Shown here piece by piece: positions 10,951 through 17,396 of a DNA stretch of 45,971 nucleotides. Each line of letters starts with the position of its first letter. Position 1 is the stretch's first letter. A model generated the notes under the pieces. That model saw nothing but the letters and a program-made list of their open reading frames with translations, was not told where the DNA came from and made no database searches. The position numbers and the translations under genes were made by a program. This stretch comes from an uncultured Erysipelotrichaceae bacterium (GTDB lineage: Bacteria > Bacillota_I > Bacilli_A > RF39 > UBA660). The DNA is taken from positions 1 to 45,971 of the forward strand of contig CAOJUX010000006.1 of NCBI GenBank assembly GCA_948444795.1. The letters run 5' to 3'.

Positions 10951-10953
10951 AAA

Positions 10954-11023
10954 AGTTCAAATAATATTAATTAAAATCATATTAGGAGTTTTATTATATC
11001 CTTGTAAAATTATGAAGGCATTT
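10954..11023 (+). repeat. Left copy of the island-flanking direct repeat
   Basis: The first 30 bases are identical to 16856-16885. After a length difference, TTTTATTATATCCT (10989-11002) and the GTAAAA...ATGAAGGCATTT block also recur in the right copy (16856-16937). The two copies bracket about 5.9 kb containing an integrase relic. This suggests attachment-site-derived ends. Confidence 0.6.
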
Positions 11024-11093
11024 TTTTAGTTTTTTGAAATATACTAAAAATATGACAGAGTCTAAATTTATAGGAATACAAGAAAGAAAACTG

Positions 11094-11227
11094 TGGTATA
11101 ATATACCTATAAAAAATCAATAATAAAGGATTTCTTTCTATTTATGCTATCACAAATTTTAAGTATTTATTCAAAAATTGATTCACAATTAAAAAGACAA
11201 AGAATTTTATCTTTGTCTTTTTAATTG
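11094..11227 (+). ncRNA. Possible small transcript with a 26-residue open frame
   Basis: An extended -10 (TGGTATAAT, 11094-11102) faces right and is followed about 85 bases later by a very strong terminator (11186-11227). In between, AAAGGA precedes an ATG at 11144 that opens a 26-codon frame (MLSQILSIYSKIDSQLKRQR..., stop at 11222-11224). The spacing of 13 bases is long and the peptide resembles nothing I know. It could be a small RNA, a leader peptide, or chance. No clear -35 is visible. Confidence 0.3.
11186..11227. terminator. Strong bidirectional terminator
   Basis: An 18-base perfect stem (11186-11203 with 11210-11227) contains AAAAAGACAAAG/CTTTGTCTTTTT. It ends the TPR gene on the minus strand, and it would equally end a plus-strand transcript from the promoter-like site at 11097. 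Confidence 0.7.
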
Positions 11228-11874
11228 TTATTTTGTTTTAAAGTTAAAATTAATGGTTTATGATTTTTATCAGCTCTGTTTCTATAAAATCTTTTATTTT
11301 TTCTTACTTCTTCAAACAATGAAATTACAAATTTAGTTTTATTTTTTGTTTTTTCAACTTTCTTTAAGTATTGATCGCCAATTGTATAATTCTCCTGTAA
11401 ATAACATTCTCTTGCCAAAACTAGAGTTGCAATTGCTTTTTGTTCATCATTTAATTCCAAACTTGCACAAGCTTCATCAATATTCATACCAGAAAGTATT
11501 AATTCTGCTAATTCATGCATACTTTCAATTCCATAATAATTTTCAGTATCATTACTAAAATCTTCAGTTGACATTTTAACTCTTGGTTTTTTATCTTCTG
11601 GATCTATTAAATCTCTTAAAGATGCAATTAAATCAGTAAAGTCTAAATCAGATTGTTCTTCTTTTGCAAGTTCAGTTGCAATTGTCAAATAATCTATTGC
11701 TGTATCTTTATCAAATTTTTTCATATAAGCGAGTCCTAATTTAGCATATACCCAAGCTTTAGGTTCTCCAAATTCTAATAATTTTCTATATGATTCTATA
11801 CAATCATCATATTCACCTCTACTATAAGCACTATTACCTTCTTTTGCTGTTTTCGAAAAATCAAAATATTTCAT
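11221..11874 (-). CDS. TPR-repeat protein
   Basis: A 217-residue, probably cytoplasmic protein. The N-terminal third reads as tandem TPR helices (GNSAYSRGEYDDCIESYRKL then AYMKKFDKDTAIDYLTIA), and further helical hairpins follow around residues 120-195. No catalytic motif, signal or membrane segment is seen. It begins inside the last codons of the upstream winged-helix/TPR gene (14-base overlap) with only a weak binding site, so it is probably made by translational coupling and works with that protein. A scaffold or partner-binding role is likely, but the target is unknown. Confidence 0.65.
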   Translation of the reverse strand: MKYFDFSKTAKEGNSAYSRGEYDDCIESYRKLLEFGEPKAWVYAKLGLAYMKKFDKDTAIDYLTIATELAKEEQSDLDFTDLIASLRDLIDPEDKKPRVKMSTEDFSNDTENYYGIESMHELAELILSGMNIDEACASLELNDEQKAIATLVLARECYLQENYTIGDQYLKKVEKTKNKTKFVISLFEEVRKNKRFYRNRADKNHKPLILTLKQNNN

Positions 11875-13792
11875 AAATATAAGGTTTAAATCTTAAAACT
11901 ACCTGTCTATTTGAATCAGATCCAATACTAAATGATACAACACTAGGAATATCTTTTACTATATTATGTATTCCTTTTCTTCTACTTGCATCCATTGGCC
12001 TTAGCAATACAATGCCTTTTTCATATAACTCATCTAATTTACTATTAATAAATTCAGAATCATCATAATCTGTTTTTATCGGTTCTAAGACTTCTTTTTT
12101 TGGAGTCGCATGAATAGCAATAGCTTCTATTGTATGTTCTTCTTCAATATTAACCTCTTCTTCATCAGTATAAATAGATGTATCTAAGATTAGAGGTTCA
12201 ACAGGTGTTGCAAATATTTGCTCTTTAATAGGCATTTGCATTGTTGGTTCTTGTTCTACTATTTTTATAGAAGCATCTATTTTATCCAAAACCTCATTAT
12301 TTCTTTTATAATTTAACATTTTTTCTGTATTATTTAATACTTGTTCTAAACCATCAGTAAGAATACAAGCTTGTCCTAGTTTATTTGCATTTGCAATAAT
12401 ATCTAAATATATTCTTGCTTCAGCAAGTTTATTTTGAGCAAGTGTTTCATAAAAATTTTGAATATATTTTGAAATATCAAAAGTAAAATTTTCTCTTGCT
12501 ATATAAGTTAAAGCTATCATTGGTTTTGAAAAAGCTAAATCTTGTTCTATTAAACTTACTTTAATTAAATCAATAATTAAAAATTCATATTCAATTTTAT
12601 TAATATTATTTAAATAACCTCGTAATGATTTAAATGAATTATCAAAATCATTTTGCATTAAATAACCAATAATTGTAGCAAAAGTTATGTTGCTATCTAT
12701 GGGTACAGGATTTGTTTTTTGAACTACTTTTTCTATAGTAGGTATTACTTCTTTTTTTACAGATTCTATTATTGGTTGTTCATTTAATTTATTAGTCTTT
12801 GTTTTAAATAACTCTGTTATGTCTGTAAGCAAAATAAATATTGCATTATCATTTGAATCTATATTATTTTTTTCAATATATTCTCTACTTAAAGATAAAG
12901 CTAGTTCAAAATTTTTACCATTAATTGCTTCAAACAACTTGTTAGTAGATACTATTTCTTTTTCAGGAATTATTCCTGTCTCTTTAAACTTAGATATTTC
13001 TTTTACTAAAAATAATATACATTCATCAGCAGTGCTTAAATGATGATTTTTCTGTACTTCTTCTAAACAAGATATAATTTCATCATATTTCTTTTGTATA
13101 GCTAAATTAATAATATTACTTTTTAAATTAATTTGCATTTCTATTGCCTGCGACAGAAGTGTTTTAACAATAATATCTTGAACACTTATTCTTCCTTTTT
13201 GTTTAATTAATTCGTCAAGTTGTTTAGAAGCCAAATTAAACCTTTGATTAAATGCAGAAATCCTAACTTTATTTTGAGAATAAGGATCTTCAAATCTTTT
13301 ATCATCAAAATCAATTCTAATATCTTCATATTTTAAATATTTAGCATATTCTTTATGTTTTTTAGGAAGTTTTGTTATCATACTAAGTAAATATAAATAG
13401 AAATTGCTATCATTATTATAATATTTATTTTCAGAATAATAAAAATGTTCATAATATTCAAATGCATTTTTATAATTTCTATTTTGTATACTTCTTAAAA
13501 ATAATTGGAAACAAGCTCCCTTATGATTTGGATTTAACTCAAAACATTTAAGAAAACATGTAGTTGCTTTGTCATATTCCTTTGAAGCAATAAGTTGCTT
13601 TCCATAATAAAATAAATTATCTATAGATAAAAAAGAATAATATCCTCTTCTTACTCTTTCAAGAACTCCATCGTTTATTAAATCTGTTAAATCTTTTCCA
13701 TTAAACCCATAACTATTTAATTCTTTTGTAGTTAGTTCTTTATTCTCAATTAATCCATTGTACATTTTATTTAAATTTTCCTCGTTAATCAT
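11861..13792 (-). CDS. Winged-helix (AbiEi-like) plus TPR repeat regulator
   Basis: 643 residues. The N-terminal segment (about 6-50, with ELTTKELNSYGFNGKDLTDL and VLERVRRGYY) matches the winged helix found at the start of AbiEi-type antitoxins and related regulators. It is followed by a long all-helical array with TPR-like units (for example KEYDKATTCFLKCFELNPNH), an acidic linker near 560-600, and a C-terminal domain ending in SNRQVVLRFKPYIYEIF. The start at 13792 is set by AAGGAGGA nine bases upstream; the frame to 13915 has no such site. No nucleotidyltransferase toxin follows, unlike abiE; the next gene is a small TPR protein. A 19-base inverted repeat lies upstream. Confidence 0.6.
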   Translation of the reverse strand: MINEENLNKMYNGLIENKELTTKELNSYGFNGKDLTDLINDGVLERVRRGYYSFLSIDNLFYYGKQLIASKEYDKATTCFLKCFELNPNHKGACFQLFLRSIQNRNYKNAFEYYEHFYYSENKYYNNDSNFYLYLLSMITKLPKKHKEYAKYLKYEDIRIDFDDKRFEDPYSQNKVRISAFNQRFNLASKQLDELIKQKGRISVQDIIVKTLLSQAIEMQINLKSNIINLAIQKKYDEIISCLEEVQKNHHLSTADECILFLVKEISKFKETGIIPEKEIVSTNKLFEAINGKNFELALSLSREYIEKNNIDSNDNAIFILLTDITELFKTKTNKLNEQPIIESVKKEVIPTIEKVVQKTNPVPIDSNITFATIIGYLMQNDFDNSFKSLRGYLNNINKIEYEFLIIDLIKVSLIEQDLAFSKPMIALTYIARENFTFDISKYIQNFYETLAQNKLAEARIYLDIIANANKLGQACILTDGLEQVLNNTEKMLNYKRNNEVLDKIDASIKIVEQEPTMQMPIKEQIFATPVEPLILDTSIYTDEEEVNIEEEHTIEAIAIHATPKKEVLEPIKTDYDDSEFINSKLDELYEKGIVLLRPMDASRRKGIHNIVKDIPSVVSFSIGSDSNRQVVLRFKPYIYEIF

Positions 13793-13978
13793 TTTCCAAT
13801 TCCTCCTTGCTTTCTTTAAAGTAAAATTTTTACTTAAAGACATAACTTCCCAGTCAAATTTTTCGAATAATAAGACAGGTACATTGTTAAAATAAATCAT
13901 AATCATTTGTAACATTTTCTATTATTTTTCTTAAAAGTTACTTAATATAATTGCCAATCTTAACCTTCTTCGGCAAAT

Positions 13979-14146
13979 TTCTTAAAGTGTTAAACTTGAA
14001 GAAAGATATTAATTTTTATATAAATAATTATTTTATAATGCTATTCTACAAAAATATTTTATACAAATATTGTAAGTAATTAAAAAAAGTGATATTATAA
14101 TACCACTTATTAGTTAAATAAATCTCAAAGTTTAACACTTTAAGAA
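13979..14146. repeat. 19-base perfect inverted repeat, 130-base spacer
   Basis: TTCTTAAAGTGTTAAACTT at 13979-13997 recurs as its exact reverse complement at 14128-14146. The pair brackets the region between the ThyX-like gene's 3' end and the winged-helix/TPR gene, including a TATAAT-like box on the minus strand (14099-14094). Placement fits an operator for autoregulation by DNA looping. AbiEi proteins are known to bind inverted repeats in their own promoter. Confidence 0.6.
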
Positions 14147-14193
14147 TTAAAAAGCACTAGTTCATTTAAAACTGTGCTTATAGTTTGCAATTT

Positions 14194-15396
14194 TTAAATT
14201 TTTCTTGAAAGATCTTTTCCCTCTTTAAAGTTGCAATTTGATAAACAATTAAAATTTGGGAAAGTACATCTAGCTCCATGAGAATATTTTTCAATATCTT
14301 GAGCAAGTGGACTATTTTGATCTTTTAATGCTTTTTGATACTTTAGTAAAGTTTCTCTAGTTTGCATCATAATTTCAAGTTGAGCTGCAGTGCATAATCT
14401 TTCTTTACATTTCAAAATAAAATCTTCATATTTTCCAACTTCATTTATTTTAACTAATTCTCCTTGTGGATTTATACCTTTTACTATTTGCATGTCAGAA
14501 AGCCATTCATCAACTAATATTCTGTCATCTTCTATAATTGGTGGTATAAAATATTGTTTTTCTTGATTTAGTTCCATTTGATAATCTAAAGTTCTATGTC
14601 TATGTGCTTGAGCAAACTCTGCAAATGAACCCATATAATTTGTTGAATAAACAGTCCCAAAATATTCTTTCTTATTATCTAGATTTTTGCCAAATATAGA
14701 TAGTTTTCTTTCCTTTTCATTTTTCATTAATCCTTCAACTAACACATTTCTATCAGAAAGTTGATTTATAAATTCATTCATATAACTAGCTAACTTTGTT
14801 TCAAAATAATCATTTTGATTATGATTTCTAATATATTCTTCCATCCATGATGCAATATAATTTATTTGTCTTAAAGAAGTTGAATAAATTAATGTTGTAG
14901 GCATAAATACTGTAACTAAATATCTAGCATTTTCTTGAGCTAATTTTTGTATTTTAACATCATTATAAACATTACCATATTTTTCTTTTATCTTTATTTT
15001 AAATATGTCTATCCATTTATTATAAAGTCTTTCTTCTTCAAATGTTATTATAGATCCTTCTTGCCTAACAACAGGAGTATATCTTGCTGATTTTTCACTT
15101 GTTGTATATTGATGTTCATTATTTAATACCATAGCAAGTATTTTGGGTACATTTTGTAAATTTAAATTTAAAGTTATATGATCATACACACTATGATGTC
15201 CGTTGTTTAATGTCATATTAACTCTTTTCATCGTTTTTTCTACAGGTTCATTAACTATATGATTGAATCCTTCCTTGTCATAACAAACTCCTGCAATTTT
15301 ACCACATAATTTGATAGCTTCTTCTTGATTAAAAGAGCCATTTTCTTTTAAAAATTGATTTGGTAAAATATCAATTTTTACACTGCTTTTTTCCAT
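14194..15396 (-). CDS. ThyX-like (flavin-dependent thymidylate synthase family) tandem protein
   Basis: 400 residues, about twice the single ThyX domain. The N-terminal half has the ThyX helix GHHSVYDH (66-73), but where the RHR-x7-SxRY motif should be it reads NEHQYTTSEKSARY, so the RHR triad is lost while SARY is kept. The C-terminal half contains AHRHRTLDYQ (HRHR at 265-268), which resembles the missing RHR. This suggests two degenerate ThyX-like domains sharing one active site, or a relative with another activity. Start at 15396 from GGAGG six bases upstream. It is on the putative island with the integrase relic, so cargo status is possible. Thymidylate synthesis is the family role, not shown here. 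Confidence 0.6.
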   Translation of the reverse strand: MEKSSVKIDILPNQFLKENGSFNQEEAIKLCGKIAGVCYDKEGFNHIVNEPVEKTMKRVNMTLNNGHHSVYDHITLNLNLQNVPKILAMVLNNEHQYTTSEKSARYTPVVRQEGSIITFEEERLYNKWIDIFKIKIKEKYGNVYNDVKIQKLAQENARYLVTVFMPTTLIYSTSLRQINYIASWMEEYIRNHNQNDYFETKLASYMNEFINQLSDRNVLVEGLMKNEKERKLSIFGKNLDNKKEYFGTVYSTNYMGSFAEFAQAHRHRTLDYQMELNQEKQYFIPPIIEDDRILVDEWLSDMQIVKGINPQGELVKINEVGKYEDFILKCKERLCTAAQLEIMMQTRETLLKYQKALKDQNSPLAQDIEKYSHGARCTFPNFNCLSNCNFKEGKDLSRKI

Positions 15397-15650
15397 AAAA
15401 ACCTCCATACTATTTTGACCTTTTTAATTCTTTAACAATTGTTATTGGTAAAACAGAGAAGATAATATCTTTATTTTCTTAAAGCTATTTACTATAAGTT
15501 TTTTTTATTAATTTTTAGCCTTTTTATATAAAAATTCTAGTGACATTTTTATTTTGTAATGCTATACTATACTTAGTTATTGGGATAGTTTATGTCTGAA
15601 AGTAAATAGCTTTGAGATTATAAATTATAGTTACTTAAATTAAAAATATA

Positions 15651-15696
15651 AAGAAAAAAAGACCATAAAATATAATATAATCTATTAATGGTCTTT
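15651..15696 (-). terminator. Terminator after the integrase relic
   Basis: Stem AAAGACCAT (15658-15666) with ATGGTCTTT (15688-15696) and a run of T on the minus strand. The loop is 21 bases. It overlaps the integrase stop. The rest of the gap 15409-15650 shows no gene. Confidence 0.5.
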
Positions 15697-16790
15697 ATAA
15701 ATATAATGGTTTTAATTGATTCATCATTAAGACTTTATTTTCATAACTTGGATGAACATATCTTTCTAATGTTATTTTTACACTAGAGTGTCCTAATATT
15801 TCACTTAAAGTTTTTGGATCACAACCATTTTCAATACATCTTGTGGCAAAAGTATGACGAAGAGCATGAAAATTATATATTCCTAAATCAAGATTTAAAA
15901 GTATTTGTTTATATCTATTAAAATAAGTTCTTGGTTCAATATATTTTTCAGTTCCAGATAATAAAAAATCATTAGGATTTGTATTTTCATTAAGTTTATT
16001 CAATTATAGGAATTAAAAAATTAGGAATTGGTATTTCTCTTATTGATGATAAAGATTTTGGTTCATCTATTATAACTATTGTTTTCTTTTTTATATTATC
16101 ATCAGGATTTTTAATTCTTATTAATGTCTTTTTAACTTTTAATTTTTTATTTTCTAAATCAATATTTTTCCATTGTAAAGCACATAACTCACCTATTCTT
16201 AAACCAGTATAAAGACAAAAATAAATGCCAAAATCTTTTTGATTCAAATTTTTAAGTATCTCTTTCTCAAGTTTTTCTTGATCATATTTAGTTAAAATTT
16301 GAATGTCTTTTTTTGGTACTTTTGGCATAGAAATTTTTATATTAATATTGCCATATTTTAATATTTGTTGCAAAATTATCAAAATATCTTTAACTGTTTT
16401 TTCAGTTAAGCCCTCATTTAATAAACCAGAAGTAAATTTATTAATGAGTTCTAAAGATAATGTTTTTTTCTTAATTCCTGCAAACTTAGGAATAATTCTG
16501 GATTTTAAAGTATATTGATAATTTGAATAAGTCGATTTTTTATTTTTTATTTTAGCATTATTTAACCAACAATTAATATCATAGCCAAGATAATTTTTAT
16601 CATATATAAGTAAATCATTTTTATTTATTAAATTTTTAATAGTTTTATTATAATTATTTAAAACTTCTTTTTTTGTAGCGCCATAAACTGATTTATAATT
16701 TGCTGCTCCATTATCTTTATATCCATAATGATATCTAATTTCAAATCTTCCATCATTTCTAGAATAAATACTTTCAATTTTTTCTTTCAT
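15695..16790 (-). pseudogene. Tyrosine recombinase/integrase (Tn916-type), frameshifted
   Basis: The first 264 residues (16790-15996) hold an N-terminal arm-binding region, a SAM-like core-binding domain and the first part of the catalytic domain with the active Arg in YTGLRIGELCALQW. A TAA at 15998-15996 ends that frame. The rest continues in another frame (to 15695) with FHALRHTFATRC, LGHSSVKITLERYVHP and thus the H-x-x-R, His/Trp and Tyr nucleophile residues. Dropping the single T at 15998 joins them as ...PIIE-KLNENT..., giving about 365 residues, the usual length. All catalytic residues are otherwise present, so inactivation is recent or a sequencing artefact. AAGGAGG precedes the ATG. 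It sits next to the right-hand direct repeat, as integrases usually sit next to their attachment site. Confidence 0.8.
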
Positions 16791-16833
16791 TGTTTCCTCC
16801 TTTCCGTTTAATATAATACATTTATTTTTTCAT

Positions 16834-16859
16834 ATAAAAAAACTCTAATATTTAGAGTT
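16834..16859 (-). terminator. Minus-strand terminator upstream of the integrase
   Basis: Stem AACTCTAA/TTAGAGTT (16841-16859) followed on the minus strand by seven T. It would stop transcription arriving from the right before the integrase gene. Confidence 0.5.
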
Positions 16860-16937
16860 CAAATAATATTAATTAAAATCATATTCATATAATGCAGTAT
16901 TTTTATTATATCCTCGTAAAACAAAATGAAGGCATTT
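16856..16937 (+). repeat. Right copy of the island-flanking direct repeat
   Basis: The partner of 10954-11023: 30 identical bases (16856-16885), an extra segment of about 12 bases, then TTTTATTATATCCT (16901-16914) and the ATGAAGGCATTT block. It lies 66 bases from the integrase start codon. Confidence 0.6.
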
Positions 16938-16998: not shown

Positions 16999-17070
16999 AT
17001 AAATTTCTTTAAATTTTTTCTTTACTTAATATCATAGATAATATATATTAAATATAGGGATAAGATTATA

Positions 17071-17241
17071 AACTACGCCAATTTTGTTAATTCTGGTAAT
17101 CCTTGGTTCAAACGTGGTGGCAATTACAATGATACCACTAATGCTGGTGTGTTTAATTTCAATCGCAACAATGGTAATGCTAATTCCAACAACAGTTTCC
17201 GCGTAGTTCTCTCTTTCTACTATGATGAAATAATGTTATAA
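17071..17241 (+). other. DGR template-repeat-like segment (orphan)
   Basis: Read in frame from 17071, the DNA encodes the C-terminal variable part of a DGR-type C-type-lectin target: NPWFKRGGNYNDTTNAGVF, then an Asn-rich stretch, then SFRVVLSF, with a stop at 17239-17241. There is no start codon or binding site; the frame is closed by a stop at 17035. The many AAT/AAC codons at what would be variable positions are typical of a template repeat, whose adenines are the ones mutated on copying, rather than of a diversified variable repeat. GC is 24 of 60 bases in both 17101-17160 and 17161-17220, clearly above the surroundings, with GGC, CGC and GCC codons rare elsewhere in the window. No reverse transcriptase or avd gene is seen. 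A remnant of a target-gene 3' end is the alternative. Confidence 0.65.
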
Positions 17242-17242
17242 A

Positions 17243-17262
17243 TTTAAGTTTAAGGACTTAAA
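17243..17262 (+). other. Hairpin just downstream of the template-like segment
   Basis: TTTAAGT (17243-17249) pairs with ACTTAAA (17256-17262) around a six-base loop. DGR repeats are often followed by a hairpin that aids homing. In template copies its role is less clear, so the match is only suggestive. Confidence 0.35.
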
Positions 17263-17366
17263 ATAATAGTTATCATAGAAATCTAATTCCTTTGCAATAT
17301 TTTTGCATAAACAAATAAATAGTATTAAAAGATTAGTAGTAAAATGATGAAATTCTTTTAATATGG

Positions 17367-17396
17367 AAGATAACCATAATGAGTTATCTTTTTTTT
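17367..17396 (+). terminator. Plus-strand terminator of the template-repeat unit
   Basis: Stem AAGATAAC (17367-17374) with GTTATCTT (17383-17390) and eight T on the plus strand. No T run exists on the other strand, so it terminates rightward transcription. The only thing to its left on the plus strand is the template-like unit. Confidence 0.65.

What the first reader, a model, noticed from the sequence alone, without database searches (positions are those of the whole stretch)
17071..17241. Orphan DGR template repeat without a reverse transcriptase
Seen: an in-frame C-type-lectin-like variable-region sequence (WFKRGG, AGVF, SFRVVLSF) with a run of AAY codons at the positions that vary in DGR targets, no start codon, and GC about 40% in an AT-rich region. 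Known: DGR template repeats are non-coding copies of a target gene's 3' end, and adenines in them are randomised when copied. Inference: this is a template repeat working in trans with a reverse transcriptase elsewhere, or the remains of a DGR. No RT, avd or target gene lies in this window.
Basis: partly seen in the sequence, partly recalled or inferred. Interest (0 to 1): 0.8.

Follow-up and report, generated by a model that had tools for sequence, protein, structure and literature searches.

The report
Stand-alone template RNA of split DGR
This spot encodes the template RNA of a bacterial targeted-mutation machine, cut off from the enzyme that copies it; the enzyme and at least nine genes it appears to rewrite lie elsewhere in the genome, so template, enzyme and targets appear to work together at a distance.

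Summary
Window 17071-17214 is a DGR template repeat (TR). The same genome has 11 further copies, 9 of them clear, at the 3' ends of genes. They differ from the window copy chiefly at its adenines (187/351 A positions versus 113/936 others, p=3e-50). No RT lies on this contig. A DGR-type RT with Avd lies mid-contig on C2 and has no TR within about 10 kb.

In close relatives the same TR sits beside the orthologous MutS_I-Avd-RT operon, so here the cassette has been split. The window locus is a complete, separate template-RNA gene: promoter-like site, leader, TR, structured spacer RNA, terminator hairpin. The spacer structure shows compensatory changes across 8 loci. Its leader pairs with the spacer around the TR, and this pairing covaries across 97 units. 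The spacer resembles Rfam RT-14 but is below its cut-off.

Most likely this RNA works in trans with the C2 bRT-Avd. It is a new arrangement of a known system, with a possible precedent in partially degraded trans DGRs of Thiohalocapsa. Activity is untested.

Side findings: the target-gene family has G10 tracts (15 of 16 out of frame), and relatives carry tandem arrays of up to 11 template RNAs.

The parts
17021..17049 (+). sigma-70-like promoter (TTTACT-N17-TATATT) placed to start an RNA at about 17056
   Evidence: 9/12 consensus; not above the chance rate in this AT-rich region; support comes from its position just before the conserved leader, with comparable TATAAT..GGGATTAG leaders in array units of relatives
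17057..17067 (+). leader GGGATAAGATT, 5' strand of helix P1 that encloses the TR
   Evidence: pairs 10 of 12 with the spacer motif AAATCTAATTCC; leader and spacer covary over 97 units
17071..17214 (+). template repeat (TR), about 144 nt, AAY-rich; 3' end TTTCCGCGTAGTTCTCTC (17196-17213) occupies the place of the initiation-of-mutagenic-homing element
   Evidence: 11 further copies, differences concentrated at TR adenines
17218..17369 (+). structured spacer RNA downstream of the TR
   Evidence: 23 of 35 pairs with compensatory change, 92.6% of cells paired against 35-48% when slid; model R1, 105.9 bits, E about 1e-16; the window is one of the 8 training sequences; full-length sub-threshold match to Rfam RF02921 RT-14, 33.4 bits, 17220-17365
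17280..17290 (+). AATCTAATTCC, 3' strand of helix P1
17367..17396 (+). terminator-like hairpin AAGATAAC-N8-GTTATCTT plus T-run, predicted 3' end of the template RNA
   Evidence: sequence and predicted fold; not reported by the consensus scan, which requires 3 G-C pairs

Best explanation
The window locus is a stand-alone DGR template-RNA gene, about 340 nt: leader, TR, structured spacer and terminator, transcribed from its own promoter. It most likely works in trans. The RNA is bound by the bRT-Avd complex encoded on contig C2 (MutS_I-like ORF, Avd, RT). cDNA is made with errors opposite template adenines and replaces the homologous 3' ends of at least nine dispersed genes for membrane-anchored proteins. 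Ancestrally the TR sat beside the RT; in this lineage it is found only at a separate site, so the DGR is split into template, enzyme and target loci. Shown: TR identity, A-biased VRs, conserved RNA structure, cis arrangement in relatives, absence of a TR near the C2 RT. Inferred: transcription, pairing with the C2 RT, present activity.
For: A-specific differences from 9 VRs, 187/351 A versus 113/936 non-A, p=3e-50; best VR (C40) 18/39 versus 5/104. VRs lie at the 3' ends of open frames. The C2 RT is DGR-type (phrog_1423, E 3e-109; motif IGNYTSQ, YMDD) with Avd (PF22296 E 2e-19, phrog_3206). The C2 RT is 59-69% identical to RTs of G015, G016, G019, G020 (64-67% in the broken G021 copy), each with a homologous TR and spacer just upstream. 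63 of 80 RT loci of this clade carry the RNA in the fetched locus, whereas G000 has exactly one copy, in the window, and none at C2 even with filters off. The window RNA takes part in the compensatory pattern and keeps the P1 helix. The other RTs have alternatives: C5 has its own different TR/VR pair and C11 is retron-like. C6 flanking genes match the genus at 82-86%, so the contig belongs to the bin's genus.
Against: The assembly is a draft MAG (74 contigs, 81% complete, 5.8% contamination), so strain mixture or a missing second cassette cannot be excluded. VRs carry 5-22 non-A differences from the TR; four recur in many copies (17164, 17165, 17203, 17211), so some VRs may stem from an older or different TR. 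P1 in the window has one A-A mismatch. No expression, cDNA or population data. The promoter match is no better than chance by consensus.
Confidence: 0.78

Rival explanations
1. Relic: the window TR is the leftover of a former complete cassette, no longer used; the VRs are frozen records of past activity.
For: No RT or target next to it; a frameshifted tyrosine integrase and a direct-repeat-bounded element lie just upstream; other genomes have TR cassettes with no RT found (G012, G101); recurrent non-A differences between TR and VRs.
Against: Spacer structure, leader helix, terminator and adenine-rich codons are all kept; an intact RT-Avd operon without a TR exists in the same genome; VRs such as C40 differ from the TR at only 5 of 104 non-A sites.
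Confidence: 0.14
2. Assembly or binning artefact: the TR belongs beside the C2 RT, or to another strain, and was misplaced in contig C6.
For: Draft MAG; repeats break many contigs at VRs; 5.8% contamination.
Against: The TR lies 17 kb inside C6 and carries unique leader, spacer and terminator; C2 reads through its RT locus at 20-22 kb of 75.7 kb without a TR; rubrerythrin and RelA/SpoT genes beside the TR are the genus's own.
Confidence: 0.06
3. The TR is served by the C5 DGR RT rather than by the C2 RT.
For: C5 also encodes a DGR-type RT with a weaker Avd match.
Against: C5 has its own TR/VR pair of different sequence; its RT is only 39% identical to the clade whose cassettes carry this TR-spacer; no R1 RNA near C5.
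Confidence: 0.05

Closest known systems
Bordetella phage BPP-1 DGR (TR, spacer, bRT, Avd)
   Same: Adenine-specific mutagenesis signature, TR followed by a structured spacer RNA said to recruit bRT-Avd, Avd next to RT, VRs at gene 3' ends (PMC12875486 for the BPP-1 spacer and termination model)
   Different: In BPP-1 the TR lies between avd and brt in one cassette; here the TR is its own gene on another contig, and a MutS_I-like ORF precedes Avd
Trans-acting and degraded DGR loci of Thiohalocapsa PB-PSB1 (PMC10907252)
   Same: Incomplete DGR loci, with targets apparently diversified in trans by components elsewhere
   Different: There each class keeps one complete locus; here no complete locus of this class was found in the genome, and the only TR and the only matching RT are separate
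Treponema denticola DGR with remote targets (PMC4891356)
   Same: One TR serving several dispersed targets
   Different: There TR and RT are together; only the targets are remote
Rfam RF02921, RT-14 RNA
   Same: Same position after a TR and same structure; array units in a relative pass the gathering score (L187: 52.6 and 51.3 bits against 48.1)
   Different: The window copy is below the gathering score (33.4 bits); no paper in the held library was found that names RT-14, so whether its DGR role was noted before is unknown
Cis cassettes in the same genus (G015, G016, G019, G020, G021)
   Same: Homologous TR and spacer RNA and orthologous RT
   Different: TR directly upstream of MutS_I-like ORF, Avd and RT

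Membership tests
Diversity-generating retroelement (DGR) | Non-coding TR with VR copies that differ chiefly at TR adenines | tested here: met
Diversity-generating retroelement (DGR) | VRs at the 3' end of target genes | tested here: met
Diversity-generating retroelement (DGR) | Target domain of C-type-lectin / FGE fold | tested here: inconclusive
   weak PF03781 match in a relative's target only; AlphaFold model of the G000 target too poor to use, pLDDT 40
Diversity-generating retroelement (DGR) | DGR-type reverse transcriptase in the genome | tested here: met
   C2 and C5: phrog_1423, PF00078; C2 motifs IGNYTSQ and YMDD read from the translation
Diversity-generating retroelement (DGR) | Accessory protein Avd with the RT | tested here: met
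   PF22296 above cut-off, phrog_3206; NCBIfam NF033474 74 bits, just under its cut-off of 80
Diversity-generating retroelement (DGR) | TR in the same cassette as the RT (usual, not strictly defining) | tested here: not met
   no RT on C6; no TR or spacer RNA within about 10 kb of the C2 RT
Diversity-generating retroelement (DGR) | Structured spacer RNA 3' of the TR | tested here: met
Diversity-generating retroelement (DGR) | Adenine-mutagenic cDNA synthesis and retrohoming | not testable with these tools
   needs reads or experiments
Rfam RF02921 (RT-14 RNA) | Score at or above the gathering cut-off of 48.1 bits | tested here: not met
   window 33.4 bits, full length, E 0.0066; none at gathering; L187 units 52.6 and 51.3 bits

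The most novel reading that the evidence does not exclude
In this family of gut Bacilli the DGR template RNA is a separable module with its own promoter, closing helix, spacer and terminator. It can leave the RT, stand alone, and multiply into tandem arrays of up to 11 different templates. In the window's genome one detached template would hypermutate a dispersed family of surface proteins that share a promoter and are each switched by a G9/G10 tract, so that hypermutation and on/off switching act on the same genes.
Probability: 0.4. Interest if true: 0.75.

Novelty: new variant of a known kind. Interest (0 to 1): 0.58.

Why it matters
DGR surveys commonly look for the TR next to the RT; a large metagenome survey notes that it would miss remote targets (PMC8144416). 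A detached template gene shows that template search should be done by its own RNA signature (leader-spacer helix plus spacer structure). It also provides a natural case in which template, enzyme and targets are separate genes, so trans action can be tested directly.

Tried and rejected
BLAST of 20 kb around the three RTs against the fetched contigs: repeats downstream of the C2 RT are tandem repeats within neighbouring coding genes, not TR/VR. A residual TR or spacer upstream of the C2 RT operon was sought with the RNA model, filters off: nothing convincing. G003 and G018 'spacer' BLAST hits were short chance matches, in a coding region or an AT-rich intergenic stretch. A scan of viral contigs for the leader-spacer pattern found none; the pattern used (AAACCTAATTCC) was one variant only, so this says little. 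AlphaFold of the target gave pLDDT 40 and was not used. The paper that described RT RNAs (Weinberg et al. 2017) is not held. Literature searches for arrays of TRs and for DGR with phase variation found no precedent in the held open-access library, apart from one DGR with two TRs.

Full report
OBSERVATION. The stretch 17071-17241 is as described: an in-frame, AAY-rich, start-less lectin-like sequence. The window is a whole contig (C6) of a 1.46 Mb draft MAG, 81% complete. BLAST against that genome finds further copies of 17072-17214 on C40, C19, C29, C36, C42, C37, C43, C7, C5 and, over part of the length, C1 and C12. Each lies at the 3' end of an open frame. Over nine clear copies 187 of 351 adenine positions differ against 113 of 936 other positions (Fisher p 3e-50). 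The best single copy, C40, differs at 18 of 39 adenines and 5 of 104 other bases. This is the DGR signature, with the window copy as template.

THE ENZYME. PF00078 finds three RTs in the genome, on C2, C5 and C11, none on C6. C11 is retron-like. C5 is a DGR RT with a TR/VR pair of its own that is unrelated to the window TR. C2 encodes a MutS_I-like ORF, Avd and a DGR-type RT in a row, and has no TR or VR within about 10 kb.

RELATIVES. Five genomes of the same genus (G015, G016, G019, G020, G021) carry the same TR plus conserved downstream sequence directly upstream of MutS_I-like ORF, Avd and RT. These RTs are 59-69% identical to the C2 RT (the G021 copy is broken by stops). In 63 of 80 named RT loci of this clade the RNA lies in the fetched stretch. 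The rule is therefore linkage in cis, and this genome is an exception: its only RNA of this kind is the one in the window. Other stand-alone cases exist, usually with a target next to the TR: G012 (two cassettes, no RVT_1 in a 92% complete MAG), G101 (none) and G213 (one RT that the DGR RT query did not match). At the window locus, relatives have rubrerythrin with other genes next to it and no TR, so the TR is an insertion specific to this lineage or lost elsewhere.

THE RNA. Downstream of the TR, 8 loci share a structured spacer. On the alignment 23 of 35 predicted pairs have compensatory changes, and 92.6% of cells are paired against 35-48% when partners are slid. The structure was derived from the same alignment, which favours it over slid versions; the 0/500 shuffle results and the number of compensatory pairs are the stronger part. 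The leader before the TR (GGGATAAGATT, 17057-17067) is complementary to AATCTAATTCC in the spacer (17280-17290). Over 97 units the mean is 10.15 of 12 paired against 9.20 (sd 0.07) when spacer motifs are exchanged among units, with many double changes, for example GGGATTGGATT/AATCCAATTCC, GGTTATAAATTG/AAATTTATAACC and GGGATAAAAGA/TCTTTTATTCC. So the TR is enclosed by a helix. By analogy this helix may limit cDNA synthesis, as sequence 5' of the TR does in BPP-1 (PMC12875486); that role is inference. A hairpin with a T-run ends the unit at about 17396. Rfam RT-14 (RF02921) is evidently the same RNA class: array units in L187 pass its cut-off and the window matches it full length below cut-off.

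TARGETS. 21 copies of a 30-bp sequence, CTATTATTACTAATTGAATTATGAATAATA, occur in the genome. Nearly all lie just upstream of a gene start with TTGAAT-N17-TATAAT; one lies 240 bp upstream of the C2 RT operon, without the TATAAT. The genes begin with a membrane anchor containing a G tract. Of 16 tracts 15 are G10 and put the downstream frame out of phase; one is G9 and in phase, in a VR-bearing gene on C5. Downstream frames are intact where the contig allows reading, with one exception (L279, a stop after 53 codons), so these look like switchable genes rather than pseudogenes; programmed frameshifting is an alternative. Only part of this family carries VR-type ends.

MECHANISM AND CONFIDENCE. 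Template RNA from the window, bRT-Avd from C2 and dispersed VRs together make a complete DGR in pieces. Trans action of DGR parts has a precedent (PMC10907252), and bRT, Avd and TR need not lie on the same DNA as the target (PMC12875486). Shown here: TR identity, RNA conservation, RT and Avd presence, separation. Not shown: transcription, binding, activity. The draft assembly is the main weakness.

NOVELTY. It is a DGR by its features; the arrangement (sole template separate from sole matching RT) is a variant. I found no report of it in the held library, which lacks most subscription papers.

Noticed in passing
L187:362-4280 (CANQZD010000005.1), L183:3048-6676 (CANQXM010000044.1), L180:2591-5745 (CANQAU010000058.1), L207:2505-4151: Tandem arrays of 4 to 11 TR-plus-spacer RNA units (about 300-500 bp period) beside a DGR RT. 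The TRs differ from each other mostly at columns where some unit has A (28 of 33 variable columns in L187), as if the templates themselves had been diversified. For L180 (G185) one of the array TRs finds only one VR in that MAG: many templates, few targets.
   Followed up: partly
G000 contigs C1, C2, C3, C4, C5, C7, C9, C10, C12, C16, C19, C28, C31 (loci L276-L291): Family of membrane-anchored proteins with a shared promoter and a G tract: 15 loci G10 (out of frame), 1 locus G9 (in frame, a DGR target), in an AT-rich genome. Looks like phase variation, perhaps one gene on at a time.
   Followed up: partly
L025:8330-8360 (C2:19835-19864): The 30-bp target-gene promoter sequence also lies 240 bp upstream of the MutS_I-Avd-RT operon, without a TATAAT box; shared regulation or the scar of a deleted target gene.
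   Followed up: partly
window 10953-16886: 31-bp perfect direct repeat GAGTTCAAATAATATTAATTAAAATCATATT (or nearly so) within about 90-bp imperfect repeats bounds a 5.9 kb segment with a thyX-like gene and a frameshifted tyrosine integrase: a small integrated element ending about 120 bp before the TR leader.
   Followed up: partly
L271:8647-8814 (G202:C2): Spacer RNA identical over the stretch read to that of a TR on another contig (C20) follows directly after the VR of a coding target gene, so a VR can acquire the spacer.
   Followed up: no
G000:C5, L026:9160-10811: A second, unrelated DGR with Avd-like protein, RT and an 84-bp TR/VR-like pair (87% identical) flanking the RT.
   Followed up: no
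L079:9634-9840; L082:9440-9637; L084 about 780-970: A small XRE-type HTH gene follows the VR or TR in several relatives (Pfam-confirmed for L079) and could regulate the system.
   Followed up: no
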